Shown here: piece after piece, positions 1,952 through 24,288 of the stretch
How the letters are laid out: every line of letters begins with the position of its first letter
Position numbering within the stretch: position 1 is the first letter of the stretch
Assembly: GCA_030149525.1 (NCBI GenBank)
Contig: JASBRJ010000200.1
Coordinates: 1 to 32,423, forward strand
Source of the DNA: a bacterium
Lineage (GTDB): Bacteria > Vulcanimicrobiota > Xenobia > Xenobiales > JADMJV01
Direction: 5' to 3'
Length of the DNA stretch: 32,423 nt
The notes under the pieces: generated by a model
Told to the model about the DNA's origin: nothing
The model's input: the letters and a program-made list of their open reading frames with translations, nothing else
The model's database searches: none
Made by a program: the position numbers and the translations under genes

Positions 1952-1959
1952 CGGTCTCC

Positions 1960-3402: not shown

Positions 3403-3704
3403 GAGACTGCGTCACCTTTCCTGAAAACTTCAGCTCCCTCAACTTCGACACTGTCGATAATGGCCATAATCACCGCGTCGCAGGGCGTATTGACGGTTTG
3501 AGAGGTCTGGCGAGCCGAGGAACCGGCAGCCAGAAGAACCACTTCTCGAGGCCCGGCACCGATAGCATCAATGGCCACTAGAGGATTACCCTGCACCGTC
3601 ATATCGCTGGCGCACAGAGGCTGGACGAGCTGAAACTTGACCCCCTCGAGAGAAGGCGTCTTTTGGGTACAGACAACCGTACCTATTACTCTACCGATGG
3701 TCAC
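3399..3704 (-). CDS. BMC-P shell vertex protein (EutN/CcmL family)
   Basis: A 101-residue third pentamer-type shell protein. It has the opening TIGRVIGTVVCTQKTPSL, the GNPLVAIDAIGAGPREVVLL central block, and a closing CDAVIMAIIDSVEVEG. I place the start at the GTG whose last bases overlap the TGA of the preceding gene (GTGA), with AGAGGTGA 8 bases upstream; an ATG eight codons earlier would overlap that gene further and lacks this site. The loop GSSARQTSQT is typical of the vertex proteins of EutN type. Confidence 0.93.
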   Translation of the reverse strand: MTIGRVIGTVVCTQKTPSLEGVKFQLVQPLCASDMTVQGNPLVAIDAIGAGPREVVLLAAGSSARQTSQTVNTPCDAVIMAIIDSVEVEGAEVFRKGDAVS

Positions 3705-4474
3705 TGAAAAATCACCTCTATCCCCCACTCTCCGGCTCGCTGAGCAGCCAACGGAGTCACGATCGTTCCCATAGCCACGGGAAGCTTGCTCTGACCCGAA
3801 CGACGCACAGCCTCCACATCTTCCACCGTGATCACATCCCGGCCCGCGCTTGAGGACTGAGGAGCCGAGACATTCCCACCACCGGAAGAGCCGAGTTTCT
3901 GCAGAAAGCCGCCTAATTCGGTGGGGCCACCGAATTCAACCCCGAAAGAACAGACAATCCGATAGAACTCTTCAAACCGACGCACCAGGCCACCGGGCAA
4001 CCGGGAACTGTGTCGCCGGAAAGCCTCAAATCGACTGTTATCGAGAAAGACCGGAAGCCCCGAGGAAAGGGCTGCCACAGCCGCCTGAGCTGGTGGGGCG
4101 TCGCCGGCTCCCAGATTCCCGATGGAAGCCAGCACAGAGAGTCCGCAGCCAGGGATGACGACGGCCTTGTACCCCGACACCACATCGCTCCAATGGGTGG
4201 TTCGGGCCTCTACCTTCCACGACTGACCGTCCGACGGGATTTGGTCGGCACGAAATCCGTTCCAAACGAGAACCGAAGGACGGACTCCGGCAGACTGACC
4301 GACAGCCTTCCATAGACTGGAATCGACTCTCTCTTCGCCAGGCGCCAGCAGAACCCGAGCCCCACTTTGCTGAGCGGGAATGGAGGTAACGGCCGGCCCA
4401 GGACTCGCCTGGGCCAGTTCAGCCATCACCAGTTGAGTGATGACGTCGACGAGATTGTCAAACTCCGAGGACAA
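3701..4474 (-). CDS. BMC-associated flavoprotein-like protein with encapsulation peptide
   Basis: A 257-residue protein of three parts. Residues 5-21 (FDNLVDVITQLVMAELA) form an amphipathic helix nearly matching those of DeoC and the dehydrogenase, so it probably enters the compartment. Residues 40-185 resemble the Rossmann-like flavoprotein family found in many BMC loci: YKAVVIPGCGLSVLASIGNLG followed by AAVAALSSGLPVFL parallels the cofactor-binding region of that family. Residues 212-255 carry a tail, VITVEDVEAVRRSG then GTIVTPLAAQRAGEWGIEV, a segment seen at the ends of several BMC-linked proteins. The reaction is not known to me. The start is a TTG, chosen because the helix begins there. 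An alternative is a catalytically inactive assembly factor. Confidence 0.72.
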   Translation of the reverse strand: MSSEFDNLVDVITQLVMAELAQASPGPAVTSIPAQQSGARVLLAPGEERVDSSLWKAVGQSAGVRPSVLVWNGFRADQIPSDGQSWKVEARTTHWSDVVSGYKAVVIPGCGLSVLASIGNLGAGDAPPAQAAVAALSSGLPVFLDNSRFEAFRRHSSRLPGGLVRRFEEFYRIVCSFGVEFGGPTELGGFLQKLGSSGGGNVSAPQSSSAGRDVITVEDVEAVRRSGQSKLPVAMGTIVTPLAAQRAGEWGIEVIFQ

Positions 4475-9905: not shown

Positions 9906-11282
9906 TTGTCCCATACCCTTACCGAAAGCCGAAAAGCCACCTACCTGGAAGACCTGAAAACGCTTTTGCGCATTCCCAGCGTCTCCACTGATCCCAACCG
10001 AAAAGACGAGGTCAAACGCTGCGCCGACGAAGTGGCACGGCAAATGAAAGAAGCCGGACTTCAGGAGGTGGAGATCATCAGCACTCCCGGTCACCCAGTG
10101 GTTTACGGCGAGTACAAAACCGATCCGGACGCCCCCACTGCACTGGTTTACGGACACTACGACGTGCAACCGGAAGACCCGATTGAGCTATGGACCAGCC
10201 CTCCCTTCGAGCCGACTCTCCGCGACGGCAAACTCTTTGCCCGAGGCGCCACCGACGACAAGGGCCAGTTTCTCTGCCACATCAAGGCCGTTGCCTCCAT
10301 GCTTGAAGAAGAGAAAACTCTCCCTTTGAATCTCAAGTTCATCATAGAAGGAGAAGAGGAGATCGGGAGCCCTCACCTGGCCCCCTTCCTGGAGGCCCAC
10401 AAAGAGAAGTTGGCGGCCGATGTTCTGGTTGTTTCCGACAGCGCCATGTATGCACCGGACCAGCCCTCAATTGTGTATGGCTTGAGAGGGTTGGCCTACC
10501 TTCAAATAGACCTCAAGGGTGCCGACTCCGACCTCCACTCGGGTGTCTTTGGAGGCGCCGTCCCTAACCCGGCCCTAGAACTGGCCAGGATTCTTGCGCA
10601 ACTCAAGGATCAAGACGAGAAAGTCACGGTGCCCGGCTTCTATGACAAGGTGGAGGATATGAGTGTCCAGGAACGTCAAGCCTATGCCGCTCTCGGCTTC
10701 GACCCCGAGGAGTTCCGAGCAGGAGTCGGAGTGAAACAACTCACCCCGGAGAAAGGCTACAACGCTCTGGAAGGCCGTACTGCCAGACCCACACTCGAGG
10801 TCAACGGCCTTCTTTCAGGCTATACCGGAGAGGGTGCCAAAACCGTTTTGCCTGCCAAGGCTATGGCAAAAATCAGTTGTCGGCTCGTCCCCAACCAGGA
10901 GCCCGATGAGATTGCTCGATTGCTGGAAGCTCACATTCAAAAGATTTGCCACCCGAGTATGGAGTGCAAAGTGACCCGGATGCATGGAGGTCACCCCTGG
11001 ATCACCCCTCCCGATCACCCCGCCCTTGAAGCAGCCGCTGAGGCTGTAAGGGCCGTCTTCAATAAGGAACCGGTGAGAATACGAGAAGGTGGGTCTATCC
11101 CCATCGTCATCGACTTCCAGAAAATCCTGGGGCTGCCGGGCATCTTGCTCGGTTATGGACTCAACGACGAAAATCTCCACGCTCCCAATGAACATTTTCG
11201 GGTAGAAAACTTCTACAAGGGTATCGAGATTTCTAAAGAGTTGTTCAGAGCGTTAGCCAAGAGTCAGTCACTGGCCGGCTGA
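9906..11282 (+). CDS. M20-family metallopeptidase (dipeptidase type)
   Basis: 458 residues of the M20/M28 zinc-peptidase fold. Motifs include LVYGHYDVQPEDP (first metal ligands), ARGATDDKGQF (bridging Asp), and IEGEEEIGSPH (catalytic Glu pair). A dimerisation domain with LHSGVFGGAVPNP follows, and the C-terminal metal histidine is in NEHFRVEN. This subtype includes carnosinase-like and CNDP-like dipeptidases; there is no signal peptide, so it acts in the cytoplasm. I prefer the TTG at 9906, six bases after AAGGAG, over a TTG ten codons earlier that would contain this site. Its last 15 bases overlap the convergent lipoprotein gene. Confidence 0.93.
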   Translation: MSHTLTESRKATYLEDLKTLLRIPSVSTDPNRKDEVKRCADEVARQMKEAGLQEVEIISTPGHPVVYGEYKTDPDAPTALVYGHYDVQPEDPIELWTSPPFEPTLRDGKLFARGATDDKGQFLCHIKAVASMLEEEKTLPLNLKFIIEGEEEIGSPHLAPFLEAHKEKLAADVLVVSDSAMYAPDQPSIVYGLRGLAYLQIDLKGADSDLHSGVFGGAVPNPALELARILAQLKDQDEKVTVPGFYDKVEDMSVQERQAYAALGFDPEEFRAGVGVKQLTPEKGYNALEGRTARPTLEVNGLLSGYTGEGAKTVLPAKAMAKISCRLVPNQEPDEIARLLEAHIQKICHPSMECKVTRMHGGHPWITPPDHPALEAAAEAVRAVFNKEPVRIREGGSIPIVIDFQKILGLPGILLGYGLNDENLHAPNEHFRVENFYKGIEISKELFRALAKSQSLAG

Positions 11283-12164
11283 ACGATCTGAATCACCTGC
11301 TTGAGAGAGCTTCTGGCCAACGACGGCCCGAAGCTCTTTTGCTTTCTCCAGGACCTGCGGCTCAAGACCCTGAGTGGCAATCACCGCATCGAGCATTTTG
11401 GCAGCCTCGGAATAACGACCTCTACCCGCAAGAGCCTCCGCAAGGCCAAGAAAACCTTGTATGTTGGTAGACTCCATTCTCAGACCACTCCTGAAATAGC
11501 GCTCTGCTTCGGCATACTCCTTATTCTCAAGAAGATATTGAGCCAGTGTAAAGTGAGTTTCTATGCGGAAGCTATGATCCGATATGAGGGTCTCCAGTTC
11601 TGAAATGGCAGCAGGAAGCTGGCCGAGCTCTCGCCTCCAGGCAGCGGAAAGCAAAGTGGCCTCTTCTGTCAGCGTACGATTGGTTCGAGCCTTTTGAACC
11701 TTGTCTACGGCCGTCTGGAGGAGCTCTTTCTTTTTGGCCGGTTCGGTCTCCCTTTGAGCCTGAGAGGCCAACAGTTTGGCCAGCTCGAGAAACGCCTCGG
11801 CCTGTTCGGAACTCCGGGTTGCGGCCTGTTCCAAATCCTTGAGAGCCTCCTCTTCTCTTCCTAGAGCCAGCAGAGTTCTAGCCCGATAAACCAGGACGAG
11901 AGGGTGCTCCACTTTCAACTCTAAAGCCAGATCGAGGTACTGCAGAGCTTGTTCATACTGCTGCTCCTCGAAGGCGACCCGACCAAGGTTGTAGTTAGCG
12001 GCCGCCCTGGTCTTGGAATCCTGGGCGGCCGCCTTGTAGTACTCCACGGCAGCCGCCTTGTCACCTCTTCTGTAGGCGATGTTTCCTAACTGCATGGAGG
12101 ATTCAGGATTGCTGCACCCGGCCAAGAGTAACGCCAGCATGCCTGCGGCTAATCTCATTTTCAC
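11268..12164 (-). CDS. TPR-repeat lipoprotein
   Basis: 298 residues. A lipoprotein signal ends in LLLAGC (C17 lipidated). Then come about six tetratricopeptide repeats, e.g. AAANYNLGRVAFEEQQYEQAL and PLVLVYRARTLLALGREEEAL, up to residue 275. Such proteins are scaffolds in the periplasm or on the inner face of the outer membrane. The GTG start overlaps the TGA of the third HTTM-type gene, with a second in-frame ATG two codons on. Translational coupling suggests it works with the HTTM proteins, perhaps as a periplasmic partner (inference). Confidence 0.85.
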   Translation of the reverse strand: MKMRLAAGMLALLLAGCSNPESSMQLGNIAYRRGDKAAAVEYYKAAAQDSKTRAAANYNLGRVAFEEQQYEQALQYLDLALELKVEHPLVLVYRARTLLALGREEEALKDLEQAATRSSEQAEAFLELAKLLASQAQRETEPAKKKELLQTAVDKVQKARTNRTLTEEATLLSAAWRRELGQLPAAISELETLISDHSFRIETHFTLAQYLLENKEYAEAERYFRSGLRMESTNIQGFLGLAEALAGRGRYSEAAKMLDAVIATQGLEPQVLEKAKELRAVVGQKLSQAGDSDRSAGQ

Positions 12165-13387
12165 AAAGCATTCCCTTCTGTTCGCAAGTGAACAGGTGTG
12201 TCACTCAAGAGTTTTAGTTTCGCACCGCCTAAAGAAAACTCTTTGGAGAGCGGAACAGTTCTCATCCAAACCGTCACTGGCCCCTGCACCTGCCCGTATC
12301 TCAAGGCGAGAGCGGTAGAGAGAGTTGAAGCCCAGTACTCATCCTGTCCCACCTTGTTCGCAAAGAGTCGATCACGCCTCCCACTCTCCGAGGAAATGGA
12401 CCAGATCATCTGACCGGTCGACTGATCGAGTGCGGCCAATTGCACCAGTCGATCAGACGGCACCGGATAGACCTGGGACCAATCCTGATGAAAGCCGAGC
12501 CCCTGACCTAACGCCTTGGCCGCCCCTCCGGGGAAAATATTGAGAGCCAGGGTGAGAGTAGCCAAGCCCACCAAACAGGCCATGGCCGCAGCTTTCTTCG
12601 GCGGCGACCCAGGCCATAGGACTTCTAGATTTTGCTCCCTTTTGGGATGGTAGAGCAGGCTCACAAGAGCCAGCAGCAGCGTCATCGGAAAGAGCGGATG
12701 AAGCAGAGTTGCCCGAGCAGCCAGAATAGGCACGGCAAGGACCAGCATGGGGATGCGAATAGGTCGGAACCAGACCGCCGGAATAAGCAACCAAACAAGC
12801 AGTCTCTCAAAACCCAAAACGCCGAAATAAAGAGGCGAAATCTGACCACCCCCCCACTGAACAGACAACCAGAACGATTCCGCGCCCGCGGTTAAGCCTC
12901 GAAAAAACAAGCAGGCTGTCAACTGAATTTGCAAACCAAGCGTAGCGAGCGTCACAACGTCTTTGTTGGACCTAGCACCTAATGGGGGAAGAAAGATATC
13001 CCAGAAGAGCAGCAAGCGGACCAAGTCATCGCTCGCATCGAGCAGAGCCGGATTTCGGTTCTGAAGCGACAGCATGAGCACCCATAACAAGACTCGCGTT
13101 GGGCGACGATCCCTCCCCATTAGCTGGAGAAGCCCTAGTCCGATGGTGAGCAAAAGGAGGGCGTAAACGACCCAGGGTTGTCCCGAGACGAGATAAAAAC
13201 TGAAGGCGTAAGTTCCCTTCAAGGTCGTAAAATATTGACTCCGACTGAGAACTCCCAGATCAGAAAGGTAGAATGCCGCCTCCGGCAGGCGCACGAGACA
13301 GTCCACCGCGCACCATAAACCCAGGCCACGCCTCATCCAGCCGAGACCCTCCGTAGGCAAACTTATCAGCTGAAGCATCTTACTCAC
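12161..13387 (-). CDS. HTTM-like polytopic membrane protein, divergent third paralogue
   Basis: 408 residues with about seven to nine hydrophobic spans, followed by a soluble C-terminal part (about 300-408). The layout parallels its two upstream neighbours: DCLVRLPEAAFYLSDLGVL at the start, then LLLFWDIFLPPLG, which corresponds to their LLMWxNFLPWGERF block, and HQDWSQVYPVPSDRL, which corresponds to their WGMFSPxP block. Identity is low, so it is a diverged copy or a partner of the same fold. GTG start overlaps the preceding stop (GTGA), with GGAGAA 8 bases before. The HTTM fold is shared with vitamin K-dependent carboxylases; the bacterial function is mostly unknown. Confidence 0.7.
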   Translation of the reverse strand: MSKMLQLISLPTEGLGWMRRGLGLWCAVDCLVRLPEAAFYLSDLGVLSRSQYFTTLKGTYAFSFYLVSGQPWVVYALLLLTIGLGLLQLMGRDRRPTRVLLWVLMLSLQNRNPALLDASDDLVRLLLFWDIFLPPLGARSNKDVVTLATLGLQIQLTACLFFRGLTAGAESFWLSVQWGGGQISPLYFGVLGFERLLVWLLIPAVWFRPIRIPMLVLAVPILAARATLLHPLFPMTLLLALVSLLYHPKREQNLEVLWPGSPPKKAAAMACLVGLATLTLALNIFPGGAAKALGQGLGFHQDWSQVYPVPSDRLVQLAALDQSTGQMIWSISSESGRRDRLFANKVGQDEYWASTLSTALALRYGQVQGPVTVWMRTVPLSKEFSLGGAKLKLLSDTPVHLRTEGNAL

Positions 13388-14835
13388 GGGATATATTCTC
13401 CAAGAGTATCCTTGCCTCGTTCTTCCAGAAGATAATCTTTGGGGATAGTGCGAACATTGTAGAGCCAGCGTGCCCTGACTATCGGGTCATCGGGATGAGC
13501 TTCATTCCAACGATGTGCTAAATAGCGCAGATACATCTGAGCATGACCTTCACCTCTCCTGATCACGACCCCCCTCTCAAAAGCTCGCCATCTGTAGTTC
13601 CAGGGATAAGGATAAAACTGTTCCGGCTGATCGAGAAAGGGCAGTTGAGAGACCAGGTTTATCACTCTGCCCGATCGAGTCGTAGCCTGCATGGTGCATT
13701 GCCCCACCGAATCAGGAGGTTTGGGGCTAAACATCCCCCACCTCTGATCGAGTGACAAAGCCTTGAGAGTCCCGGTGAGAACATTCCGCTCCTCGGGCCG
13801 GTCAATGGTCCACCAAAGATTGAAAATGGTGAGAGGCAAGAGCACGTAGGGCAATAACCAGTAAAGTTTCGCCAACCGGCCTCGTCCCACCGGGTCTGCG
13901 TTCTTGGGCGCCAAACCCGGAAATGACGAAAAGAACCGAGTCAAGGAACTGCAAACCCTCTTCCCCCAACGGTTCTCCCAGACCAGGGGAGGCAAAAGCC
14001 CCAGGGGGCCCACCATACAAACGAGAGCGAAAACATAAATATCGATATTGGCAACGATGCCGAAATGAAAACTTACGATCAGAAGCACGGACACCAACCG
14101 GGCCCACTGGCTTGGCAGCAGCAGCAGAATCGGTCCGAAAATTTCCAAAAAGAGAGTCACCCAGGTCAGGAAAGCAAGCGGTTCAGCACCCACAGTCAGC
14201 ATGTAGGGTGCCAGAGCCGTCTGGTAGTTGTCGAGATTAAGCGCGTAGTAGAGGGCGCTGTCATCGACCTGCCATTCTTTACCTACCCTCAAGACGGCGC
14301 TGAACCAGTAAAGAATCCCCACCTGAATCAGATAGCAGAAGCCGGGAAACCGACTATACAGATTGCCCTGCGATTCGTCGTCTCTGTCCTGCTCCAGAGA
14401 AAACCGCTCCCCCCAGGGCAAGAAATTGGCCCACATCAAAAGCAGGGGAAGGTAGACATCCCCTGAGTTATTGACCACAGGATTTCTGCGAAAAACACTG
14501 AGAACACAGGCCCAACAGATCCAGCCGGCCAACCGAGTCCGATACCCTACCGTGAGCGAGAGGGCAGAGAGCAAAAAGAAAGCAAAGAACAGCCCCACAA
14601 AGAGCGGCGTGTCGTTGAGATAGAGAAGACTCCAACGACGATAGGTGATATCCGGCTGAGAGAGATACTGATCGAGGGGGAGGAATCCGTTCTGGGTGTA
14701 GTGAGCGCCATAGTGAACGGCCCGAATGAGAATGTCCCCAACGAGTATGAGCCCCAGACATATCCTGAAAAAGCCAAGACTGCGCTTATCCAGGGCAAGC
14801 CAATGCTGCCAGATATCTCTAGACGGTGAACTCAA
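13384..14835 (-). CDS. HTTM-domain membrane protein
   Basis: 483 residues. The N-terminal HTTM domain begins WLALDKRSLGFFRICLGLIL and includes LLLMWANFLPWGERFSLEQ, and LIQVGILYWFSAVLRVGKEW followed by ALYYALN, all matching the domain first named in gamma-carboxylases. A soluble C-terminal part begins at RWGMFSPKPP. I place the start at a TTG overlapping the TGA of the upstream paralogue (TTGA), 8 bases after GGAGG; the open frame runs far upstream but that part is antisense-like overlap inside the neighbour and lacks homology. Very similar in plan to the upstream gene, so a tandem duplication is likely. Confidence 0.85.
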   Translation of the reverse strand: MSSPSRDIWQHWLALDKRSLGFFRICLGLILVGDILIRAVHYGAHYTQNGFLPLDQYLSQPDITYRRWSLLYLNDTPLFVGLFFAFFLLSALSLTVGYRTRLAGWICWACVLSVFRRNPVVNNSGDVYLPLLLMWANFLPWGERFSLEQDRDDESQGNLYSRFPGFCYLIQVGILYWFSAVLRVGKEWQVDDSALYYALNLDNYQTALAPYMLTVGAEPLAFLTWVTLFLEIFGPILLLLPSQWARLVSVLLIVSFHFGIVANIDIYVFALVCMVGPLGLLPPLVWENRWGKRVCSSLTRFFSSFPGLAPKNADPVGRGRLAKLYWLLPYVLLPLTIFNLWWTIDRPEERNVLTGTLKALSLDQRWGMFSPKPPDSVGQCTMQATTRSGRVINLVSQLPFLDQPEQFYPYPWNYRWRAFERGVVIRRGEGHAQMYLRYLAHRWNEAHPDDPIVRARWLYNVRTIPKDYLLEERGKDTLGEYIP

Positions 14836-16238
14836 TCCATACCTCCGTTCTCCGACTCTACTATATGATATTCCCCGAGAACTTGATCTTCGGCCGGTCT
14901 CAACAAATAATCCGGCTGAGAAAATTTTGGATGGTAACGATATTGAGCGACTATGACCGGGTCTTCGGGATGCTCGCGCTGCCACTCTTGAACAAGATAG
15001 TTGAGATACAACTCTACCTCTCGGGGCCTGTCTTTGCCCAGAGAGACGTGAAAATAGGCCCAACGAGCCTCAGACCAGGAATCTCGTTCCCCTTTTTCCA
15101 GTAGCGTCACACTCTTGCCGGACGCAGTACGAGCGACCGCACTCTCCCAGCCCACAAAATTGAGGGGATACGGACTGAACATACCCCAGTACTGATTCAG
15201 ACCGAGAACTCTTGCTAAGCCGCTCACCGGCGTCTGCGGATTGGACTCTTTGGTGCCGGCTCCCAATTGAATCAAGATAATCAAAAGCAATGCCACCGGA
15301 ATCGTGTTCTCAAGCTTTCGTTGGAGACCCGATTCTGCCGGCGGTGAAACGCCCTCCCCGAGACGTAAGGCCCATTTCGCAAAGAATCCTGACAGCATCG
15401 AGTCTAGCTTGGAGGTCCACGACCAATTCCAAAAGGCCGGAGGCAGCAACCCCAGGGCCGCCGCGATGCACACAAAGGCAAAAAACGGAATCTTCAAAGT
15501 GGCCACGATGCCAAGATGGAAACTGATAATCAAAAGTACGGAGACGAGTCGAACCGGGGTCGAGGGCAGAAAAAGTAAAATTGGGCCAAGAATCTCAAAG
15601 AACAGAGTAGCCGCCGTGAAGAAGCCCAGCACATGAAGGCCCAGGACGGGCAAGTACCGGCCCAGCGCGGTTGTCAGCGGGTCTATGTGCATGGCGTAGT
15701 AGAGAGCGGAGTCCTCTACCTGCCACTCCTTCCCAACTCGCAGCACCGCAGAAAACCAGTACACGATTCCAACCTGGGCGATAAAACAAAAGCCTGCCAG
15801 TGAGCGATACTCCGAATCTTGATCCGGCTTCGCCTCTAATCCGAAACGCTCACCCCAGGGCAAGAAATTTCCCCACATGAGCAGACATATCATATATTGA
15901 ACGCCCCCATCACCTAAAAGCGGTCCTCGCCGATCGACACTCACCGCCAGCAACCAGCAGATCCACCCGGCCAGACGCACACGATACCCGGCGGTCAGGG
16001 AGATTGCGGCCAGCAGATAGAGCAGAAAAAGAAGGGCCACCCATACGGGTGAATCAGATATGTAAAAGAGGCTCCAGGGACGCCGGCTGATAGCCGGATG
16101 CTCTAGAAACCGAGCGAGGGGGGCCACTCCCAGGTAGGTGTAGTGGGCCTTGAAGTAGGAAAATCGGTTGAGAATATCGGCGACAAGGATCAGACCTAAA
16201 GAAATTCTCAGGATTCCGAGAGACCGCTTGTCGAGCAT
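14832..16238 (-). CDS. HTTM-domain membrane protein
   Basis: 468 residues, the first gene of the HTTM unit. The domain starts MLDKRSLGILRISLGLIL and contains LLMWGNFLPWGERFGLE, and FIAQVGIVYWFSAVLRVGKEW followed by ALYYAMH; a hydrophobic stretch near 365-380 is followed by a soluble tail from YWGMFSPYP. Around eight membrane spans can be counted. ATG at 16238 is the start that begins with the family pattern; the longer open frame crosses the tRNA gene and is rejected. Neighbouring paralogues overlap it by 4 bases. A catalytic role like vitamin K carboxylation is not supported by anything visible. Confidence 0.87.
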   Translation of the reverse strand: MLDKRSLGILRISLGLILVADILNRFSYFKAHYTYLGVAPLARFLEHPAISRRPWSLFYISDSPVWVALLFLLYLLAAISLTAGYRVRLAGWICWLLAVSVDRRGPLLGDGGVQYMICLLMWGNFLPWGERFGLEAKPDQDSEYRSLAGFCFIAQVGIVYWFSAVLRVGKEWQVEDSALYYAMHIDPLTTALGRYLPVLGLHVLGFFTAATLFFEILGPILLFLPSTPVRLVSVLLIISFHLGIVATLKIPFFAFVCIAAALGLLPPAFWNWSWTSKLDSMLSGFFAKWALRLGEGVSPPAESGLQRKLENTIPVALLLIILIQLGAGTKESNPQTPVSGLARVLGLNQYWGMFSPYPLNFVGWESAVARTASGKSVTLLEKGERDSWSEARWAYFHVSLGKDRPREVELYLNYLVQEWQREHPEDPVIVAQYRYHPKFSQPDYLLRPAEDQVLGEYHIVESENGGMD

Positions 16239-16338: not shown

Positions 16339-16424
16339 TGGTGCCCGGGGCCGGGATCGAACCGGCACTCCCAAAGGGAACGGGTTTTTGAGACCCGCGC
16401 GTCTACCAATTCCGCCACCCGGGC
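16339..16424 (-). tRNA. tRNA-Leu (anticodon CAA)
   Basis: Reads on the minus strand as a complete class II tRNA of 86 bases including an encoded CCA. The acceptor stem GCCCGGG pairs with CCCGGGC, followed by discriminator A. The D-arm contains TGGTAGACG. The anticodon stem is CGGGT/ACCCG with loop CTCAAAA, giving anticodon CAA for codon UUG. A long variable arm precedes the T-arm GGTTCGATCC. UUG is also a frequent start codon in this window. Confidence 0.97.
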
Positions 16425-16591: not shown

Positions 16592-17593
16592 ATGAGATTT
16601 CCCATAGACTTCGCCATGTCGAACGCAAAACACATGGTGCAACAACGCAGCAAAGGCCGCAAGCGGTACCCCACCGTCCTCATGCTTGAGCCGCTCTACA
16701 CCTGTAACCTGGCCTGCCTTGGCTGCTCCGTTGAACGACACACCGGCAAACTCAAAGACCGGCTGCCTGTCGACAAGTGCCTGGAAGCTGCCCGAGTCAC
16801 GGAAGCACCTACGGTAGCTCTGTGCGGCGGCGAGCCGACCCTTTACCCAGAACTGGGAGAACTTCTCCAGGGCCTTTTCGACATGGGCAAACATGTCATT
16901 TTGTGCACGAACGCCCTTTTGCTCGACAAGAAGCTTTTTCCCGTCGTGCCGCCTAACAAGAAACTGTTCGTGAACGTTCACCTCGACGGCATGAAAGAGA
17001 CCCACGACTACGTTTGCAACCGTGACGGTGTCTTCGACAAAGCCATCGCCATGGTGAAAGAGTCTAAAGAGCGCGGCTATCTCACCCTCACCAACACTAC
17101 CGTCTTCAAGGAAACCAAGATGGATGAGGTGGAGGAGCTGTGTGAAGTTCTCACAGAGATCGGCGTGGACGGCATCCTGGTCTCTCCTGGCTACGAGTAC
17201 GAGAGCGTGGAAAAGGACATCTTTCTGACTCAAAACCAGATTCACGAGAAGTTTAAACGGGTGCGCCAACTGGCCAAGAAATACAAACTGACCGCCACCC
17301 CCACGTTTCTCGACTTTGCAGCGGGCCTCATCGAACTTAAGTGTTCACCCTGGTCCACCGTAAACTACACCCCGATGGGATGGAAAGGGCCCTGTTATCT
17401 CATTGGAGAGAATTTCTACGATGACTTTGAAACCTTTTGGAACAGCGTGGACTGGGACTACTGGGAAACCAGACAAAACCGTAAATGCCTGAACTGCAAA
17501 ATGCACTCAGGATTTGAACACAGCGCCGTCCAAGCCGCCTCCAAGAGCCTCAAAGGAATGGCCCAACTGGCAGCCTGGCACGTTTCCGGCTAA
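16592..17593 (+). CDS. hpnH: Hopanoid biosynthesis radical SAM protein HpnH (adenosylhopane synthase)
   Basis: Adds the 5'-deoxyadenosyl group to diploptene, giving adenosylhopane, the first step of extended hopanoids. 333 residues. The radical SAM cluster motif is C38-x3-C42-x2-C45 in CNLACLGC, followed by CGGEPTLYPEL (SAM contact) and NVHLDGMKETHD. A further cysteine set lies in the C-terminal part (CSPW, GPCYL, CLNCKMHSG). ATG follows AGGAG closely (TTAGGAGTTACGA). It is transcribed alone, with a terminator after it, and faces the hpnA-G-I operon convergently. Confidence 0.97.
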   Translation: MRFPIDFAMSNAKHMVQQRSKGRKRYPTVLMLEPLYTCNLACLGCSVERHTGKLKDRLPVDKCLEAARVTEAPTVALCGGEPTLYPELGELLQGLFDMGKHVILCTNALLLDKKLFPVVPPNKKLFVNVHLDGMKETHDYVCNRDGVFDKAIAMVKESKERGYLTLTNTTVFKETKMDEVEELCEVLTEIGVDGILVSPGYEYESVEKDIFLTQNQIHEKFKRVRQLAKKYKLTATPTFLDFAAGLIELKCSPWSTVNYTPMGWKGPCYLIGENFYDDFETFWNSVDWDYWETRQNRKCLNCKMHSGFEHSAVQAASKSLKGMAQLAAWHVSG

Positions 17594-17609
17594 TCCTCGA
17601 AGTTACTGA

Positions 17610-17650
17610 GAAAAAAGACCGTCGGATGGGCATTCGGCGGTTTTTTCTTT
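17610..17650 (+). terminator. Rho-independent terminator after hpnH
   Basis: An 8-bp stem (CCGTCGGA pairing with TTCGGCGG, loop TGGGCA) is flanked by an A6 run before and a T6 run after, so it could act on both strands. It sits 17 bases after the hpnH stop. Confidence 0.85.
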
Positions 17651-17713
17651 GTCTTTGACGATGGGCCGGCGCGGTTCGAAGGAGGACAGACTCAGGCGTT
17701 GCAATCACAAACA

Positions 17714-17842
17714 ATGAGAAAAATTCGCATCTTCGCTCTAGCGGCTCTATTACCGGCTTCCCTGGCCCTTCCCACCCTGGCCTACCAATCGGTAGGGACC
17801 TGGTTCACCAGGCGCCCCGACTCAGCACTCACTAACAAATAG
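17714..17842 (+). CDS. Small secreted or membrane peptide (42 residues)
   Basis: A short open frame of 42 codons begins MRKIRIFALAALLPASLALP and ends RRPDSALTNK. Two basic residues, a leucine/alanine core and an LA-Y site make a plausible signal peptide; the mature part would be about 19 residues. Its TAG overlaps by one base the GTG of the methyltransferase (TAGTG), which suggests coupling and argues for real translation. GGAGG lies about 28 bases upstream, so a TTG at 17699 may be used instead. No family recognised. Without the coupling I would rate it lower. Confidence 0.5.
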   Translation: MRKIRIFALAALLPASLALPTLAYQSVGTWFTRRPDSALTNK

Positions 17843-18516
17843 TGGAAGAGCCGGAACTTCAGATCCCCTGGGGGCGTCTAGCTCTTTGGAATACGCTGTT
17901 CGGAGCCTTGTATTTTTTCCGCAGCGTTAGCCTTGACATCTGGCTAGCATCCAAGAAAACCGACGTTGAATTCGGCGAACTGAAGTTTGGAGAGACCAAC
18001 CTCAAAGCCGTGCGAGAGATTCTCAAACGGGTCCCCATGAACTCCAATACGACGGTCTTCGAGTTGGGTTGCGGCCGAGGCCGAGCCGCCTTCCTTTTCC
18101 ACTTCCTCACCGGTGCGAAGATCGTCGCCGTCGATCTGGTCGGCCCGTTCATTGTGACGGGTCGCCGACTGGCTCGCTGGATGGGATGTCAGGGCCAGGT
18201 CCTCTTTTGCTACGAGAACTTTCTCCAAACCGACCTCAGGGAGGCCGACGTCATTTACGCTTGTGCTCTGTGTCTGGGGGAACAAACCCGAGAGTCGCTG
18301 GCTCAAAGAATCTCTCAGTGTGCTGAAGGAACTCATCTGATCACCGTGGGTTGGAACCCTCAAAGAGATTGGCTTGAGCCGGTTGACCAGTTGCGCTGCG
18401 GATTTTCCTGGGGCACGGCCGGCATCTATATCAATCGCCTGAAGCGGACGCCACAATCCGACCCTCACTATCGAGATGAAGAGTCTGATCCCCCCAGGTT
18501 ACCGAGTTGCCCGTGA
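17842..18516 (+). CDS. SAM-dependent methyltransferase-like protein
   Basis: 224 residues with a class I methyltransferase core: motif I VFELGCGRGRAAF near 72-84, KIVAVDLVGPF near 93-103, then DVIYACALCLG as motif III-like. The segment FGELKFGETNLKAV ahead of motif I resembles the substrate-side loop of DOT1-like and small-molecule methyltransferases. The first 30 residues include a hydrophobic stretch (LWNTLFGALYFFRSV) that may anchor it to the membrane. The GTG start overlaps the stop of the small peptide gene. Its 3' 86 bases overlap hpnI tail to tail. The substrate is unknown; hopanoid modification is a guess from location. Confidence 0.75.
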   Translation: MEEPELQIPWGRLALWNTLFGALYFFRSVSLDIWLASKKTDVEFGELKFGETNLKAVREILKRVPMNSNTTVFELGCGRGRAAFLFHFLTGAKIVAVDLVGPFIVTGRRLARWMGCQGQVLFCYENFLQTDLREADVIYACALCLGEQTRESLAQRISQCAEGTHLITVGWNPQRDWLEPVDQLRCGFSWGTAGIYINRLKRTPQSDPHYRDEESDPPRLPSCP

Positions 18517-19552
18517 GAGACGTTGCCCATAAACCGAGGTAAAGCAGGTCTTTTAACGGCAACAGCAGCCACTCCCATTGCCGCTGTCGATGATGAGAGG
18601 GAGCCAACTTCTGCGCCTGCACAAACCCTGCGGTCCACCTCAAGAAACACCAGAACAACAAGGCTAATCCACCCCAAGCAGGGCGCATAAAGGTGAGAAA
18701 ACCGGCCCAGAACATCCCTTGGGTCACAACAAAGGCAAAATGCCCCGCCGGACGACTCACTTTTGAAGTCACAAGCCACCGATACTGATGAGACAGCGCC
18801 TGGCCAAAGCTCGGCTGACCCAGTCCGGTATCGAGGACTGTGGGGGCCAGAGCAACCTTCCAGCCTTTCTGTCGCGCCCGATGACCCAGCTGATAGTCGT
18901 CCGCCAGGTAGGGCTCTAGAGCCTCAAATCCACCGATCTGTTCAAGGGTCTCTCGACGAATAGCCATGGTCGACCCCATAGCAAAGCCCACACCCTCGGT
19001 CTTTTCTGCCACCAGGACCGACGCGCAGAAATCGACGATGCAGAGCGATTCTACCAAAGCGCCGAACCCGGACTCCGGACGAGCCCTGTAGAGACAGGTA
19101 ACAACCCCCACCTCAGGATCGGAAAACTCTCCCAGAACCGCATCCAGATACTCCGGGGAACAACCCATATCCGCGTCGGAAACCACAAATATGTCGCCCG
19201 ACCAATATCTCTGGGCAAGGGCCAACGTCGACGCTTTCCCGTTTCGGCTCTGTTCGGCTTGGAGGCGAAGCCAGGTGATTTTCGGTTGCTCCTTCAGCCA
19301 CTGCTCAGGAGCAGAGGCAGCCGAACAGAGATAGATATCGTAGTCCCCTTCTCCACACTTCTCTAGAAATCGGCTTATCTGGGCCAAAGAATCCTCGTCG
19401 GCCTCGCGAACCGGTTTGATCAAACTGAACCGGAGCCGAGGATTTTTCGCTCCAAGGTTTCGAGACGCGAATCGCACCGAACACCAGGTTGCGAACAATT
19501 GATACCCGCAACTCACTGCAAAGAGAAGGACGACCAGGCTCAGAAGAGTCAA
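18431..19552 (-). CDS. hpnI: Hopanoid glycosyltransferase HpnI
   Basis: Family 21-type glycosyltransferase resembling ceramide glucosyltransferase; HpnI adds N-acetylglucosamine to bacteriohopanetetrol. 373 residues, close to family length. Membrane span at residues 1-20, catalytic core with VVSDADMGCSPEYL (metal-binding DxD), AMGSTMAIRRETLEQIGGF, and LADDYQLGHRARQKG, and the QYRWLVTSK acceptor motif. Membrane segments follow at about 270-315. The TTG start overlaps the hpnG stop (TTGA). The partners that complete the glucosamine head group, HpnK and HpnJ, are not in the window. Confidence 0.92.
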   Translation of the reverse strand: MTLLSLVVLLFAVSCGYQLFATWCSVRFASRNLGAKNPRLRFSLIKPVREADEDSLAQISRFLEKCGEGDYDIYLCSAASAPEQWLKEQPKITWLRLQAEQSRNGKASTLALAQRYWSGDIFVVSDADMGCSPEYLDAVLGEFSDPEVGVVTCLYRARPESGFGALVESLCIVDFCASVLVAEKTEGVGFAMGSTMAIRRETLEQIGGFEALEPYLADDYQLGHRARQKGWKVALAPTVLDTGLGQPSFGQALSHQYRWLVTSKVSRPAGHFAFVVTQGMFWAGFLTFMRPAWGGLALLFWCFLRWTAGFVQAQKLAPSHHRQRQWEWLLLPLKDLLYLGLWATSLTGNSVTWGDQTLHLDSEGRIVASASGD

Positions 19553-20238
19553 GACTGCTCCGCCCCGAAACCAAGCAGAAGAGGCTTCAACTCGTTCAGC
19601 TCCGCAGACAAACTTCGGATGGCTGTAGCGGCATCTCGCGCCAGCCGAATCATCTTGGGAAGAATCAGCGGATTGAAGGCCACTTTCTTGGCCAGAGCCC
19701 TCTGGTTAGGGAAACCGTCTTTCGTGGTGTAGTGTGAAAAATCAAGGGGTAGAGATGTCTTCACATCGTCGGAGACGACCCTCACCACCAGGACAGGAGG
19801 CCCTTCTTGAAATGCCTGGAGAAAAGCCTCCGACTCAAGATCGGCCAGCAGACAATCCGGGTGCTTCTCGGCAAACGCTTTCTTCTGAGACTCCGTGTTG
19901 AGAAAGCCACAAGTGGCAATTCGCCCTTCTTTGAGCTTATGCTCCAACAAGCCCACCACTTTCGACGAACTTCTAGGATCATAAGCCACTGTGCCGAGCG
20001 TAGCTTCCAGGGTCAATCCTACCGAGAACCCGACCAGAAGCAAGAGGTCCGGCCGATAAGACCTGGCCAGAAGTTGAGCACCTCCAACCACTCTGTCCGC
20101 CCCCATACCCGTACAGAGATGAACACATCCCTGCCCCACGGAGAGTTCCAGTCCTCCCAGAGTTCCGGCAGGCTCAAGTCCAAAAACGCTCTTTAAAGCC
20201 TTGCGCTCCTCGCGAAGAGCGGTCACCAAACCGATCAT
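19549..20238 (-). CDS. hpnG: Hopanoid phosphorylase/nucleosidase HpnG
   Basis: Releases adenine from adenosylhopane to give ribosylhopane. 229 residues with the nucleoside phosphorylase fold: MIGLVTALREERKAL start, GMGADRVVGGAQLL glycine-rich region, LLLVGFSVGLTL, and LADLESEAF (the acidic residue that binds ribose in this family). The start is the ATG overlapping the hpnA stop (ATGA); a frame extension upstream of it is random sequence. It is the middle gene of the hpnA-G-I operon. Confidence 0.93.
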   Translation of the reverse strand: MIGLVTALREERKALKSVFGLEPAGTLGGLELSVGQGCVHLCTGMGADRVVGGAQLLARSYRPDLLLLVGFSVGLTLEATLGTVAYDPRSSSKVVGLLEHKLKEGRIATCGFLNTESQKKAFAEKHPDCLLADLESEAFLQAFQEGPPVLVVRVVSDDVKTSLPLDFSHYTTKDGFPNQRALAKKVAFNPLILPKMIRLARDAATAIRSLSAELNELKPLLLGFGAEQS

Positions 20239-21290
20239 GAGAGGGCTGCCTCCCGATGACGCCAGTCGGGCGGAGGCGGAGCGTAGCCGTTGTCGACAAA
20301 CCATTCAACCGCTCGCGTCAGAGCCATTTTGACCGAACCAGGCTCGAACCCGAGAGCGCGCCGAGCCTTCTCAGCATCGAAGAACATTTTCTTGCGTGCC
20401 ATCTTTACTCCCTCAAGGGGCACTTGAGGCTGGCGATCCAACAAATACCCCTCAACCAGGGTATCCACGGCACCGGCGATCCAGGCAATTCCATAGGGGA
20501 TCTGGATCTTCGGACAAGGCAAACCGGTGATATTGCTGAGCATCTCCAGAATCTCTTTGAGAGTCATATTGAGGTGACCAAGTATATAGAGTTGTCCAAC
20601 CTCTCCCAACGCTTCGGCCTGCAGATGCCCTAGAGCGACATCCTCCACCGGCACCAAGTTCAACCCCGTGTCCAGAAAGGCCGGCATCTTCCCTTGCAAA
20701 AAGTCCACCACGATTTTGCCTGTGGCTGTGGGCTTGAGATCACCCGGGCCTACCGGGGTAGAAGGGTTGACGATCACCACCGGCACCCCCTCTGAAGCCA
20801 TCTTCAGAGCCACCTCTTGAGCTAGAAACTTGGAGCGCTTGTAGTGACCCACAACGCTTTCCAGCCGGGTCTGGTCGGCTTCTGTGGAAACCCTGCCAGC
20901 TTCAGGAACGGCCAGAGCCGCCACCGACGAGGTGTAGACAACCCGAGGGATCCGGTGACGTCGACACGCCTCCAAGAGGTGGCGCGTCCCCTCCACGTTG
21001 ATGTCGTACATAGTCTTTGGGTTCTTTGAGAAGAGACGGTAATCGGCGGCACAGTGAAACACCGTCGAGCACCCGTCCAGGGAGCTTTCGTAGGATTCCG
21101 GTTTCAGAAGATCGCCCTCTACCCAGCGGACGTTCAAGTCTTGAGTGTGAGAACGGTTGGAAGCGGGGCGACAGAGAGCCCACACGTCGTCTCCCCGGTG
21201 AACAAGAGCCCTGAGCAGATGGCCTCCCACAAACCCCGTCCCCCCGGTGACGAAGACTTTCTTTGCATTTTGATCGGTCGTCTCGGTCAT
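20235..21290 (-). CDS. hpnA: Hopanoid-associated NAD-dependent sugar epimerase HpnA
   Basis: Extended short-chain dehydrogenase of 351 residues: FVTGGTGFVGGHLLRAL Rossmann motif at 13-29, and the catalytic YxxxK as YKRSK. Substrate-side motif VNPSTPVGPGDLKPTATGKI is typical of HpnA. The genetics of HpnA in other bacteria do not settle its exact reaction; it is assumed to act on a sugar-linked hopanoid or precursor. It is the first gene of the overlapping hpnA-hpnG-hpnI minus-strand operon and diverges from a small hypothetical gene at 21405. The weak-SD start is ATG. Confidence 0.93.
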   Translation of the reverse strand: MTETTDQNAKKVFVTGGTGFVGGHLLRALVHRGDDVWALCRPASNRSHTQDLNVRWVEGDLLKPESYESSLDGCSTVFHCAADYRLFSKNPKTMYDINVEGTRHLLEACRRHRIPRVVYTSSVAALAVPEAGRVSTEADQTRLESVVGHYKRSKFLAQEVALKMASEGVPVVIVNPSTPVGPGDLKPTATGKIVVDFLQGKMPAFLDTGLNLVPVEDVALGHLQAEALGEVGQLYILGHLNMTLKEILEMLSNITGLPCPKIQIPYGIAWIAGAVDTLVEGYLLDRQPQVPLEGVKMARKKMFFDAEKARRALGFEPGSVKMALTRAVEWFVDNGYAPPPPDWRHREAALS

Positions 21291-21324
21291 AGAGGATCGT
21301 TCCTCTCCTGGGCCACGACTCCCC

Positions 21325-21358
21325 TTTCAGACTCTTTTCAGACCTGATTTGCCATAAT
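21325..21358 (+). promoter_or_regulatory. Candidate extended -10 promoter and tandem TTTCAGAC repeat
   Basis: TGcCATAAT at 21350-21358 fits an extended -10, though no good -35 is seen. Just upstream, TTTCAGAC occurs twice (21325 and 21336), eleven bases apart, one helical turn, in the 114-base gap between hpnA and the small gene. This could be a regulator site. Note that the ATG at 21357 lies inside the -10, which argues for the later GTG start of the downstream gene. Confidence 0.35.
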
Positions 21359-21404
21359 GCGATTGAACAAGTGGCTGAAGCCGCTGTTCCAAGGAGATGA
21401 ACAA

Positions 21405-21794
21405 GTGAAGACCAATTTGGAAAATGAAACCGAAGGCGCGCTTCATCCCAAGTTTTCTAACAAGCTTCGGGAGGCCAGTTTATTTGGCGCCTTCACCGAA
21501 CTCACCACACCAAGATTTCAGAAATACCTCATGCAGCCTAAGCACTTTCTCAGAAACGGCTGGCTCCTCGACCCCGACCTGGAACTCAACCAACGCTCGG
21601 TCAGAGCTTACGTTCTGGGCGAATTTCCCAGCAATCCCGACAACTCCAACAGCATCGGACAACGAGTGGTCATCAATAGAAAAGATCGAAAAGCTACTTT
21701 GGAAACAAAATTTGCTACTCAGAGTCAGACGATCGAGATGGATCTGAATACGATGGAAGTCACGAAGAACGAAATTCTACAACAGAACTCGTAG
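21405..21794 (+). CDS. Small protein of unknown function
   Basis: 129 residues with no recognised domain, signal peptide or membrane span. The middle contains ELTTPRFQKYLMQPKHFLRNGW and DLELNQRSVRAYVLGEFPS; the end repeats strand-like patterns with many Asn, Lys and Thr (GQRVVINRKDRKATLETKF). GTG start, 8 bases after AAGGAG; the ATG at 21357 has no ribosome site. It ends 8 bases before the convergent HPt gene. Composition and length resemble a small globular beta-rich protein. Confidence 0.55.
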   Translation: MKTNLENETEGALHPKFSNKLREASLFGAFTELTTPRFQKYLMQPKHFLRNGWLLDPDLELNQRSVRAYVLGEFPSNPDNSNSIGQRVVINRKDRKATLETKFATQSQTIEMDLNTMEVTKNEILQQNS

Positions 21795-21802
21795 ATTTCG
21801 GT

Positions 21803-22147
21803 CTAAGTGGTCGCCGACTCGGAACTGAGGTGCTTCAAAGCCTCTTTGAGTCTGGCGACTTCACCCTGTAGAGACAAATAAGCAGCCTCAATCTCGGATT
21901 GTCCGAGAGGGGCTGCTTTTTGCAAGTTCTTAGCTGCCTCGGCACTCGGTCCGGCGTGGAGGTAGACCAGACCGCCTTTCACCCAGTGCGCTTTTTCACT
22001 GATGACTTGAGGGTCCCCTTGAGCCACAGCTTCAGACAAGGTCTGCATCATCTGGTCGATTTCCACCAGAAAGTGGCTACAAGCCATGTGAAATACGGCT
22101 TCTCCGCCAAGACATTCAATTGCTTTCTCTTCATCGATCGGTTTCAA
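21803..22147 (-). CDS. HPt (histidine phosphotransfer) domain protein
   Basis: 114 residues, all helix-forming. The phosphorylation motif A-H-W-V-K-G-G places H54 in EKAHWVKGGLVYLHA, matching the usual H-x-(L/I)-K-G pattern. Such proteins relay phosphate between a hybrid kinase and a response regulator. No kinase is in the window. It diverges from a NarL-type regulator, which may be its target or its controller (inference). Start is TTG, with GGAG 11 bases away; the start is less sure than the domain. Confidence 0.72.
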   Translation of the reverse strand: MKPIDEEKAIECLGGEAVFHMACSHFLVEIDQMMQTLSEAVAQGDPQVISEKAHWVKGGLVYLHAGPSAEAAKNLQKAAPLGQSEIEAAYLSLQGEVARLKEALKHLSSESATT

Positions 22148-22205
22148 GCTAGTTTACACTCCTTTGGCGAGGATGCCCTAAAACTGAGCCAAACAACCAG
22201 TAGCA

Positions 22206-22240
22206 TGGGTATCCAAACGCAGCATACCCAGGGATATAAT
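22206..22240 (+). promoter_or_regulatory. TATAAT -10 with an upstream inverted repeat
   Basis: TGGGTAT at 22206 and ATACCCA at 22224 form a perfect 7-base inverted repeat with an 11-base spacer, ending 4 bases before a perfect TATAAT (22235). It lies in the 156-base divergent gap between the HPt and regulator genes and would cover the -35 region. This looks like an operator and promoter for the response-regulator gene. Confidence 0.45.
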
Positions 22241-22303
22241 ACTCCGGAAAATTGCCCATGCTCTAGGAGGTCCCCAAGGTACCCGATATCGAACGCGCGG
22301 GCG

Positions 22304-22969
22304 ATGGCAATTAAGGTTTTGGTAGTTGACGACCACCCCGTCATACTGCAGGGACTTCGAGGGATGCTGGCCACTCTCGAAGATCTAGAGGTGGTTGGCG
22401 AAGCCGGCAGCGGCCCGGAAGCGATAGAAAAGACGGAGGAGCTCAAACCGGACGTCCTGTTAATGGACGTGAGGCTGCCTGAGCTCAACGGCCTTGAAGC
22501 GATGCGTCGCTTGCGTGAGAACGATCCGGACATCAAGGTCGTCTTCATAACGGTTTCAGACAGTGACCTTTATCTTGTGGAGGCCCTTCGCTGGGGTGCC
22601 AACGGTTACCTCACCAAGGATTCATCCAAAGATCTCATCGGCAACGCTATCCGCAGCGCGGTCATGGGAGGTTGCCTTCTTTCAGAAAGCCTTCTGAATA
22701 AAGCCTTCGGCGCTGTGGCGAGAGCGGCCGTCAACCTGGGTAAACCGGCCATCGAAGGAGAACTCCCTCCCATCGTCCAGCTCACTCCCCGAGAGCTCGA
22801 CGTTCTGCGTCTTGTGGCCAAAGGCATGACGAACCGGGCCATATGTAAAGATTTGAACCTGGCCGAAGTCACCATCAAGAAGCATGTTCAATCGATCATG
22901 GGAAAAATGGGGGTCAAAGATCGAACGCAAGCGGCCCTGCGCGGCGTGCGCCTCGGACTCATCGACTAG
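22304..22969 (+). CDS. NarL/LuxR-family response regulator
   Basis: 221 residues. Receiver domain (about 1-120) with acidic D9-D10 in VVDDHPV, phosphoacceptor D55 in LLMDVRLPE, and K105 in LTKDSSK. The linker is followed by a LuxR-type helix-turn-helix with LTPRELDVLRLVAKGMTNRAICKDLNLAE and an H-x-x-x-I recognition helix. ATG start is inferred from the family start MAIKVLVVDD; no close ribosome site precedes it. The nearby HPt gene suggests a phosphorelay. The target genes are unknown; hopanoid genes nearby are candidates. Confidence 0.93.
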   Translation: MAIKVLVVDDHPVILQGLRGMLATLEDLEVVGEAGSGPEAIEKTEELKPDVLLMDVRLPELNGLEAMRRLRENDPDIKVVFITVSDSDLYLVEALRWGANGYLTKDSSKDLIGNAIRSAVMGGCLLSESLLNKAFGAVARAAVNLGKPAIEGELPPIVQLTPRELDVLRLVAKGMTNRAICKDLNLAEVTIKKHVQSIMGKMGVKDRTQAALRGVRLGLID

Positions 22970-22987
22970 AACCGGCTTTGACAGCAC

Positions 22988-23016
22988 AAAAAAGCCGCTC
23001 CGTTGCGGAAGCGGCT
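22988..23016 (-). terminator. Rho-independent terminator of rpsU
   Basis: On the minus strand AGCCGCT-(T)-CCG, loop CAA, CGG-AGCGGCT is followed by T6. It ends 31 bases after the rpsU stop. It may also help insulate the convergent regulator gene. Confidence 0.85.
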
Positions 23017-23047
23017 GTGGTTCCTATGTATCCGTTAACGGATTATC

Positions 23048-23221
23048 TTATCGACGTTCGCGGCGAAGCCTTTTCTTTAGCTCCCGCCTCTTGGCATCAC
23101 TGGGCTTTTCGTAATGAGCCCGACGTCTCAATTCTGACATCAAACCAGACTGATTACACAGTCTACGGAATCTTCTGAGGGCGCTCTCGAGGGTCTCGTC
23201 GTCTTTAACAAGAGTCTCCAT
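23048..23221 (-). CDS. rpsU: 30S ribosomal protein S21
   Basis: 57 residues. The S21 pattern is clear: [20 protein letters not shown], a central Cys, then an Arg/Lys-rich tail with [20 protein letters not shown]21 assists initiation near the 16S 3' end. GGGAGG precedes the ATG closely. It is monocistronic between its own terminator and a candidate promoter at about 23304-23332; the ORF reading further upstream is not part of the gene. Confidence 0.96.
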
Positions 23222-23303
23222 AATTCGTACGCCTCCCTTCCCAGCTCCAAGCCCCCCGTTCAGGCCAGGGACCTGACTCAACAGGCTGCTCGGACTTTGC
23301 TCG

Positions 23304-23415: not shown

Positions 23416-24288
23416 TTGACAGAACTAGCGCCAATGACCCTGGCAGACTCTTATACCGCGGCTCAAGCCATCACCAAGGAACGAGCCAAAAACTTTTACT
23501 ACGGAATTCGTCTCCTACCGAAAGAGAAAAGAGAGAGTCTGTGCGCTGTCTACGCCTTTTTTAGAGAGAGCGACGACCTCTCCGACGACGACGCAATCGA
23601 CAATAAAGCCGAGCGACTGTCCCGCTGGCGGGATCTGGTGCGACAACGTCCGACCCATTTCGAAGAGGGCTCCATCCTGCCCGCTTTCTACGACTCTTTA
23701 GACAAGTATCAAATACCTTCCCGATACTTTGAGGAGCTGCTGGACGGAACCACATCCGATCTCACAGTGACGCGTTACCAGACTTTTGACGACCTCTACG
23801 GATACTGCTATAAGGTCGCCTCCACCGTGGGGCTCGTCTGTCTTCATGTCTTCGGATTCGACGGGAGTCAAGAGGCCCTTGAGCAGGCCGAGGCTCGTGG
23901 AATCGCTTTCCAATTGACCAACATTCTGCGCGACGTGAAAGAGGATGGAGAGCGGGGGCGCATCTATCTCCCGCTAGAAGATCTCGAGCGATTCAGCCTA
24001 AGTGAACAAGATTTTCTGGAAGGCCGTACCTCGGAAAGTCTCAGCGATTTCCTGAGTTTCCAAATCGAAAGAGCGAAGCAGTACTACCTCAAATCCGCGC
24101 CGCTCTCAAAACGGGTCGACGCCGAGAGCCGCCCTTCACTCGATGCCATGACCGACATCTACCGCACCCTTCTGGACAAGGTGGAAAAGATGGGGCTCCG
24201 GGTCTTCCAAGAGCGAGCCTCCCTGACAAAGTTCGAGAAACTCGCTCTAGCTGGAAAGACCGCCATTTCCACTATGCGGGGTTCTTAA
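23416..24288 (+). CDS. hpnD: Squalene/phytoene synthase-family protein, HpnD-like
   Basis: About 290 residues. The trans-isoprenyl head-to-head synthase motifs are RESDDLSDD near 50-58 and [18 protein letters not shown] near 169-186. Family members [10 protein letters not shown] near 26 support HpnD rather than HpnC. HpnD condenses two farnesyl diphosphates to presqualene diphosphate; HpnC and HpnE, which finish squalene, are not seen here. TTG at 23416 lies about 11 bases after AAGGAA; ATG at 23434 is the alternative. It is separated from the other hopanoid genes by rpsU and regulators. Carotenoid (phytoene) synthesis cannot be fully excluded from sequence alone. Confidence 0.85.

What the first reader, a model, noticed from the sequence alone, without database searches (positions are those of the whole stretch)
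11268..16238. Three tandem HTTM-type membrane proteins coupled to a TPR lipoprotein
Four genes overlap by 4 bases each. HTTM 1 and 2 are clear paralogues and the third keeps the layout while the sequence has diverged. HTTM domains in bacteria have almost no known function, so a stoichiometric membrane complex with a periplasmic lipoprotein would be new. The soluble tails (WGMFSPxP and YLxYLxxxW) might form a periplasmic module.
Basis: partly seen in the sequence, partly recalled or inferred. Interest (0 to 1): 0.65.

Follow-up and report, generated by a model that had tools for sequence, protein, structure and literature searches.

The report
Altered-site HTTM triplet with TPR lipoprotein
Four overlapping bacterial genes encode three membrane proteins related to the human vitamin K-dependent carboxylase, all lacking its key catalytic lysine, plus a TPR lipoprotein; the architecture is a variant of a known protein family, and the exact four-gene unit was found in no relative.

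Summary
Four minus-strand genes (16238 to 11268) overlap by 4 bases each: two HTTM paralogues (48% identical), a strongly diverged third HTTM homologue, and a TPR lipoprotein. The inferred stoichiometric complex is only partly supported: relatives in the same family carry single HTTM genes and no lipoprotein orthologue beside them. The same genome does hold a second three-HTTM cluster, assembled from three different HTTM subfamilies. New here: (1) the HTTM profile matches human GGCX at E = 3e-10, and GGCX's catalytic base Lys218 is a Lys in every other intact HTTM examined but Arg in HTTM1 and HTTM2 and missing in HTTM3; (2) the C-terminal 'QxWxMFSPxP' part is a fused DUF5819-like domain, which is a separate gene just upstream of HTTM in Bacillus, Virgibacillus, Streptomyces and Curtobacterium; (3) the window cluster lies near the hopanoid gene hpnD, as a single HTTM does in all five genomes of the sister genus; (4) other HTTM genes in this family sit beside a PilX-like pseudopilin with a unique Pro-rich, often Cys-rich C-terminus (6/6 against 2/41, Fisher 2.6e-6). 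Best reading: a membrane/periplasm maturation module with an altered active site. Its chemistry and substrate are unknown.

The parts
14832..16238 (-). HTTM1: HTTM membrane domain fused to a C-terminal DUF5819-like domain (QYWGMFSPYP); Arg167 at the position of GGCX Lys218
   Evidence: Pfam HTTM 30.8 bits and LMF1 32.2 bits; alignment A1; GGCX match; residue census
13384..14835 (-). HTTM2: paralogue of HTTM1 with the same architecture; same Lys-to-Arg change
   Evidence: 48% identity; Pfam HTTM 33.8 bits; tree support 100/100
12161..13387 (-). HTTM3: degenerate HTTM homologue; Lys218 and the conserved His both lost; tail motif degenerate (HQDWSQVYPVP)
   Evidence: profile hit 5e-28 over residues in the N-terminal half; no Pfam/NCBIfam match; low-confidence model whose best PDB matches are GGCX
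11268..12164 (-). TPR lipoprotein (signal peptide with lipobox LLAGC)
   Evidence: Pfam TPR hits; sequence; no orthologue beside HTTM genes in relatives
14832..14835 (-). 4-base stop/start overlap TTGA between HTTM1 and HTTM2
   Evidence: sequence
13384..13387 (-). 4-base stop/start overlap GTGA between HTTM2 and HTTM3
   Evidence: sequence
12161..12164 (-). 4-base stop/start overlap GTGA between HTTM3 and the lipoprotein
   Evidence: sequence
16339..16424 (-). tRNA-Leu (CAA), about 100 bases upstream of HTTM1 on the same strand
   Evidence: ARAGORN
23416..24288 (+). HpnD-like presqualene diphosphate synthase, the genomic landmark next to the single HTTM gene in the sister genus
   Evidence: NCBIfam HpnD 243.6 bits, below the 278.6 cut-off; only full-length match in the genome; orthologues beside HTTM in five genomes

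Best explanation
The four genes form one translationally coupled operon for a membrane/periplasm maturation module. HTTM1 and HTTM2 are GGCX/SdpB-like membrane proteins carrying their own periplasmic DUF5819-like domain. They probably arose by tandem duplication of the HTTM that sits near hpnD in this bacterial family, and both carry Arg in place of the otherwise conserved catalytic-base lysine, so they are expected to hold an isoprenoid (quinone-like) ligand and a periplasmic client without the usual base chemistry. HTTM3 is a degenerate HTTM from a different lineage that probably acts as a non-catalytic subunit. The TPR lipoprotein probably presents or anchors the client in the periplasm. 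Shown: gene layout, homology, loss of the lysine, fused DUF5819-like domain, position near hpnD. Inferred: ligand, client, complex formation and the lipoprotein's role.
For: Overlaps and ribosome sites. GGCX homology over the transmembrane domain (E = 3e-10); GGCX entries are the only significant PDB fold matches of the HTTM1 model (pLDDT 64). Lys218 is the active base (PMC12589487); its column is Lys in all intact comparison HTTMs, Arg in HTTM1/2, absent in HTTM3. The block around Arg167 (VLRVGKEWQVxDSALYYA) is the most conserved stretch between HTTM1 and HTTM2, against 48% overall, which argues for selection rather than decay. DUF5819 link: hhalign P = 1.7e-6, score 46.6 against a maximum of 21.6 in 150 column shuffles. 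Tree: HTTM1+2 sisters 100/100. HpnD synteny.
Against: No relative shares the four-gene unit. The lipoprotein could be an unrelated passenger gene. The HTTM3 model is poor (pLDDT 45) and its tail alone does not match DUF5819. No physical-interaction evidence. Arg could still support some catalysis, and a Lys lies three residues further on (RVGKEW).
Confidence: 0.4

Rival explanations
1. Ordinary lineage-specific tandem duplication: redundant HTTM copies, the third decaying, and an unrelated TPR lipoprotein that happens to be the last gene of the transcription unit. No dedicated complex.
For: No conservation of the unit in relatives; HTTM3 and the second gene of the C107 pair are both degenerate; TPR hits are generic.
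Against: The active-site block of HTTM1/2 is tightly conserved; 4-base coupling of all four genes; HTTM3 appears to come from another HTTM lineage (93/91, but on a long branch); a second triplet made of three different subfamilies.
Confidence: 0.33
2. Active GGCX/SdpAB-like modification enzymes for an exported peptide or protein, in which Arg167 or nearby Lys170 replaces the usual base.
For: All other conserved motifs are kept in HTTM1/2 (His241, FLPWGERF, WGMFSPxP); SdpB profile hits 8.9e-11 and 1e-9.
Against: Lys218 is required in GGCX (K218A abolishes catalysis, PMC12589487); GGCX His160, which binds the substrate Glu, aligns with Gly in HTTM1 and in nearly all relatives (read), so glutamate carboxylation is unlikely; no precursor peptide gene seen in the operon.
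Confidence: 0.15
3. A lipid-linked function: the module binds or handles hopanoids or other isoprenoid lipids made by the surrounding hpn genes.
For: hpnH, hpnI-like, hpnG-like, hpnA and hpnD-like genes flank the cluster; a single HTTM lies next to hpnD in all five sister-genus genomes.
Against: Other HTTM clusters of the same genome are not near hpn genes; synteny alone does not show function.
Confidence: 0.1

Closest known systems
HTTM domain proteins (PF05090), including SdpB (TIGR04033)
   Same: HTTM1/2 pass the Pfam cut-off; same transmembrane layout; SdpB profile hits at about 1e-10
   Different: Far below the SdpB curated score (42 and 38 bits against 178); fused tail; Arg at the conserved Lys
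Human vitamin K-dependent gamma-carboxylase GGCX
   Same: Profile match 3e-10 over the transmembrane domain; only significant PDB fold match
   Different: Lys218 replaced by Arg or lost; His160 not conserved; shorter soluble part
DUF5819 + HTTM gene pairs (Bacillus, Virgibacillus, Streptomyces, Curtobacterium)
   Same: Same two domains; QxWxxFxPxP motif shared
   Different: Separate adjacent genes there, one fused protein here; those HTTMs keep the Lys
Full-length HTTM of Bacteroidota and haloarchaea
   Same: HTTM plus tail in one protein (94% coverage in Haladaptatus)
   Different: Single genes, other neighbours, Lys kept
Second HTTM triplet of the same genome (contig C212)
   Same: Three consecutive HTTM-plus-tail genes
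   Different: All three keep the Lys; lies after a PilX/PilV/PilW pseudopilin trio and before an Rce1-like protease gene; no TPR lipoprotein

Membership tests
HTTM (PF05090) | Score above the curated cut-off 27.7 bits | tested here: met
   HTTM1 30.8, HTTM2 33.8 bits; HTTM3 no match
HTTM (PF05090) | HTTM3 is homologous to the family | tested here: met
   Profile without window rows, E = 5e-28, N-terminal half only
GGCX-type carboxylase | Catalytic base Lys218 | tested here: not met
   Arg in HTTM1/2, absent in HTTM3
GGCX-type carboxylase | Glu-pocket residue His160 | tested here: not met
   Aligns with Gly of the GG/GD motif (read)
GGCX-type carboxylase | Vitamin K/quinone binding | not testable with these tools
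   Needs biochemistry
SdpB (TIGR04033) | Score above curated cut-off 178.4 | tested here: not met
   41.9 and 38.4 bits
SdpABC operon | SdpA (TIGR04034) encoded in the genome | tested here: not met
   No SdpA match in any of the 58 genomes searched, own genome included
DUF5819 | Tail homologous to DUF5819 proteins | tested here: met
   Tail profile against DUF5819 P = 1.7e-6, score 46.6 against a maximum of 21.6 in 150 shuffles; hmmsearch domain i-Evalues 3e-5 to 1.5e-4. Window HTTM1/2 tails alone are weaker (P = 7e-4)
LMF1 (PF06762) | Score above cut-off 27 | tested here: inconclusive
   HTTM1 32.2 (above), HTTM2 18.8 (below)
PilF/PilW pilotin (TIGR02521), for the lipoprotein | Score above cut-off 154 | tested here: not met
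   37.7 bits, generic TPR

The most novel reading that the evidence does not exclude
HTTM-DUF5819 proteins form a bacterial maturation system for exported surface proteins. In this family most act, with the conserved Lys, on a minor pseudopilin with a Pro-rich, often Cys-rich C-terminal tail. The window operon is a repurposed heteromeric branch with the catalytic lysine replaced, working with a TPR lipoprotein as a pseudo-enzyme chaperone.
Probability: 0.17. Interest if true: 0.75.

Novelty: new variant of a known kind. Interest (0 to 1): 0.48.

Why it matters
HTTM proteins are widespread in bacteria and archaea with almost no defined function, although they are relatives of the human clotting-factor carboxylase. 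This work gives three testable handles: which HTTMs keep the catalytic lysine, the identity of the tail as a DUF5819-like domain, and a likely client (a pseudopilin with a unique C-terminal tail) for the sister proteins.

Tried and rejected
A dedicated TPR lipoprotein partner conserved in relatives: searched in 15 genomes of the order, only generic TPR hits. SdpA as the origin of the tail: SdpA is absent from the genome and relatives, and single-sequence scans of the tails hit nothing, so the DUF5819 link rests on profile comparison. A sequence link of the tail alone to the GGCX propeptide-binding domain: not found. A recalled match of the tail motif WxMF with the GGCX linker residues around Met401/402 (which line the vitamin K pocket, PMC12589487) was not tested. 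Two relatives' HTTM genes flagged with an in-frame TGA: it is their natural stop, followed by another reading frame. Phage relatives: none. HTTM3 as a simple tandem copy of HTTM1/2: the tree puts it elsewhere, but its branch is long. No literature on DUF5819 in the library.

Full report
Observation. The four genes are real and overlap exactly as described. On the minus strand HTTM1 ends and HTTM2 starts in TTGA (14832-14835), HTTM2/HTTM3 in GTGA (13384-13387) and HTTM3/lipoprotein in GTGA (12161-12164), with Shine-Dalgarno-like sequences before each internal start. HTTM1 and HTTM2 are 48% identical. HTTM3 is 28% identical to each, well above shuffled sequences (Z = 15 and 9). A profile built without window sequences still finds HTTM3 at 5e-28, over the N-terminal half only. 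The fourth gene is a TPR lipoprotein. Immediately upstream is a tRNA-Leu gene; downstream the lipoprotein gene converges on and overlaps an M20 peptidase gene.

What the HTTM proteins are. A profile of 25 full-length HTTM proteins finds human GGCX in the PDB at 3e-10. An AlphaFold2 model of HTTM1 (mean pLDDT 64) has GGCX entries as its only significant PDB matches. The HTTM3 model is poor (pLDDT 45) and its best, non-significant matches are again GGCX. Both models used alignments of HTTM proteins, so they are not independent of the sequence result.

The altered active site. [quoted passage not shown]). The column was read across this family, Bacteroidota, haloarchaea, Bacillus, Virgibacillus, Streptomyces and Curtobacterium. 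Every intact protein has Lys except HTTM1 and HTTM2 (Arg), HTTM3 (lost) and the second gene of the C107 pair (Arg in a degenerate context); one broken gene in another family of the same class has Gln. GGCX His160, which binds the substrate glutamate, aligns with Gly in HTTM1/2 and nearly all relatives, so glutamate carboxylation is not indicated. In HTTM1/2 the block around Arg167 is nearly identical while the proteins are 48% identical overall, which suggests a retained, changed site.

The tail. The C-terminal part carries the invariant pattern QxWxxFxP. In four genera on plasmids the gene directly before HTTM is annotated DUF5819. The tail profile aligns with DUF5819 at P = 1.7e-6, score 46.6 against at most 21.6 in 150 shuffles, and hmmsearch finds three DUF5819 proteins with the full-length profile. 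In one relative (L064) a separate tail-like gene also precedes a short HTTM gene. The window HTTM1/2 tails alone give a weaker signal (P = 7e-4), and the HTTM3 tail alone gives none.

Neighbourhoods. In relatives no triplet and no TPR lipoprotein beside an HTTM was found. In all five sister-genus genomes one HTTM lies next to an hpnD orthologue; the window cluster lies 7 kb from the only full-length hpnD-like gene of its genome, among hpnA, hpnG-like, hpnI-like and hpnH genes. It is therefore likely the positional homologue of that HTTM, duplicated and changed; the tree does not contradict this. The same genome has a second triplet (C212), whose three members fall in three different groups of the tree (100/99 or better for two, 93/91 for the third), and a doublet (C107).

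Other HTTMs of this family lie within 1.5 kb of a PilX-like pseudopilin (DUF7305), usually with PilV- and PilW-like genes. Of 47 DUF7305 genes in six genomes, all 6 near an HTTM have a Pro-rich linker and a special C-terminus (three Cys-rich such as GGGGCGCGC, three ending TQIP/TMIP), against 2 of 41 others (Fisher 2.6e-6). One of those two lies near a contig edge and shares its C-terminus with an HTTM-linked gene of another species (L069). Some cases are orthologues, so the test is not of fully independent events. This points to an exported client for the Lys-type HTTMs, but nothing of the kind is found in the window.

Conclusion. The finding is a real, apparently lineage-specific operon of a known superfamily with an unusual, conserved change at the catalytic position. 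A functional complex is plausible but not shown.

Noticed in passing
L055 2591-9857, L056 332-7435, L062-L064, L067-L069: HTTM genes beside PilX(DUF7305)/PilV/PilW-like pseudopilin genes; with two exceptions only the adjacent PilX-like proteins carry a Pro-rich linker and a Cys-rich or TQIP C-terminus.
   Followed up: yes
L073-L077: In Bacteroidota the HTTM gene is followed by a conserved SAM methyltransferase gene and, in three of five, preceded by a gene for a small related lipoprotein.
   Followed up: partly
L121 3872-5212; L123 4862-5269; L124 3983-4357: HTTM fused to, or near genes for, DCC/DUF393 thiol-disulfide oxidoreductases in Virgibacillus and Streptomyces plasmids, hinting at thiol redox chemistry.
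   Followed up: no
window 16592-24288: Hopanoid gene region: hpnH, hpnI-like, hpnG-like, hpnA, hpnD-like.
   Followed up: partly
window 18-4474: Deoxyribose-phosphate aldolase-like, RpiB-like and aldehyde dehydrogenase-like ORFs that look like a microcompartment-type cluster; judged by eye only.
   Followed up: no
window 30176-31603: PilN/PilO- or GspM-like ORFs, about 14 kb from the HTTM cluster (weak family hits).
   Followed up: no
window 16339-16424: tRNA-Leu (CAA) directly upstream of and codirectional with the HTTM operon.
   Followed up: no
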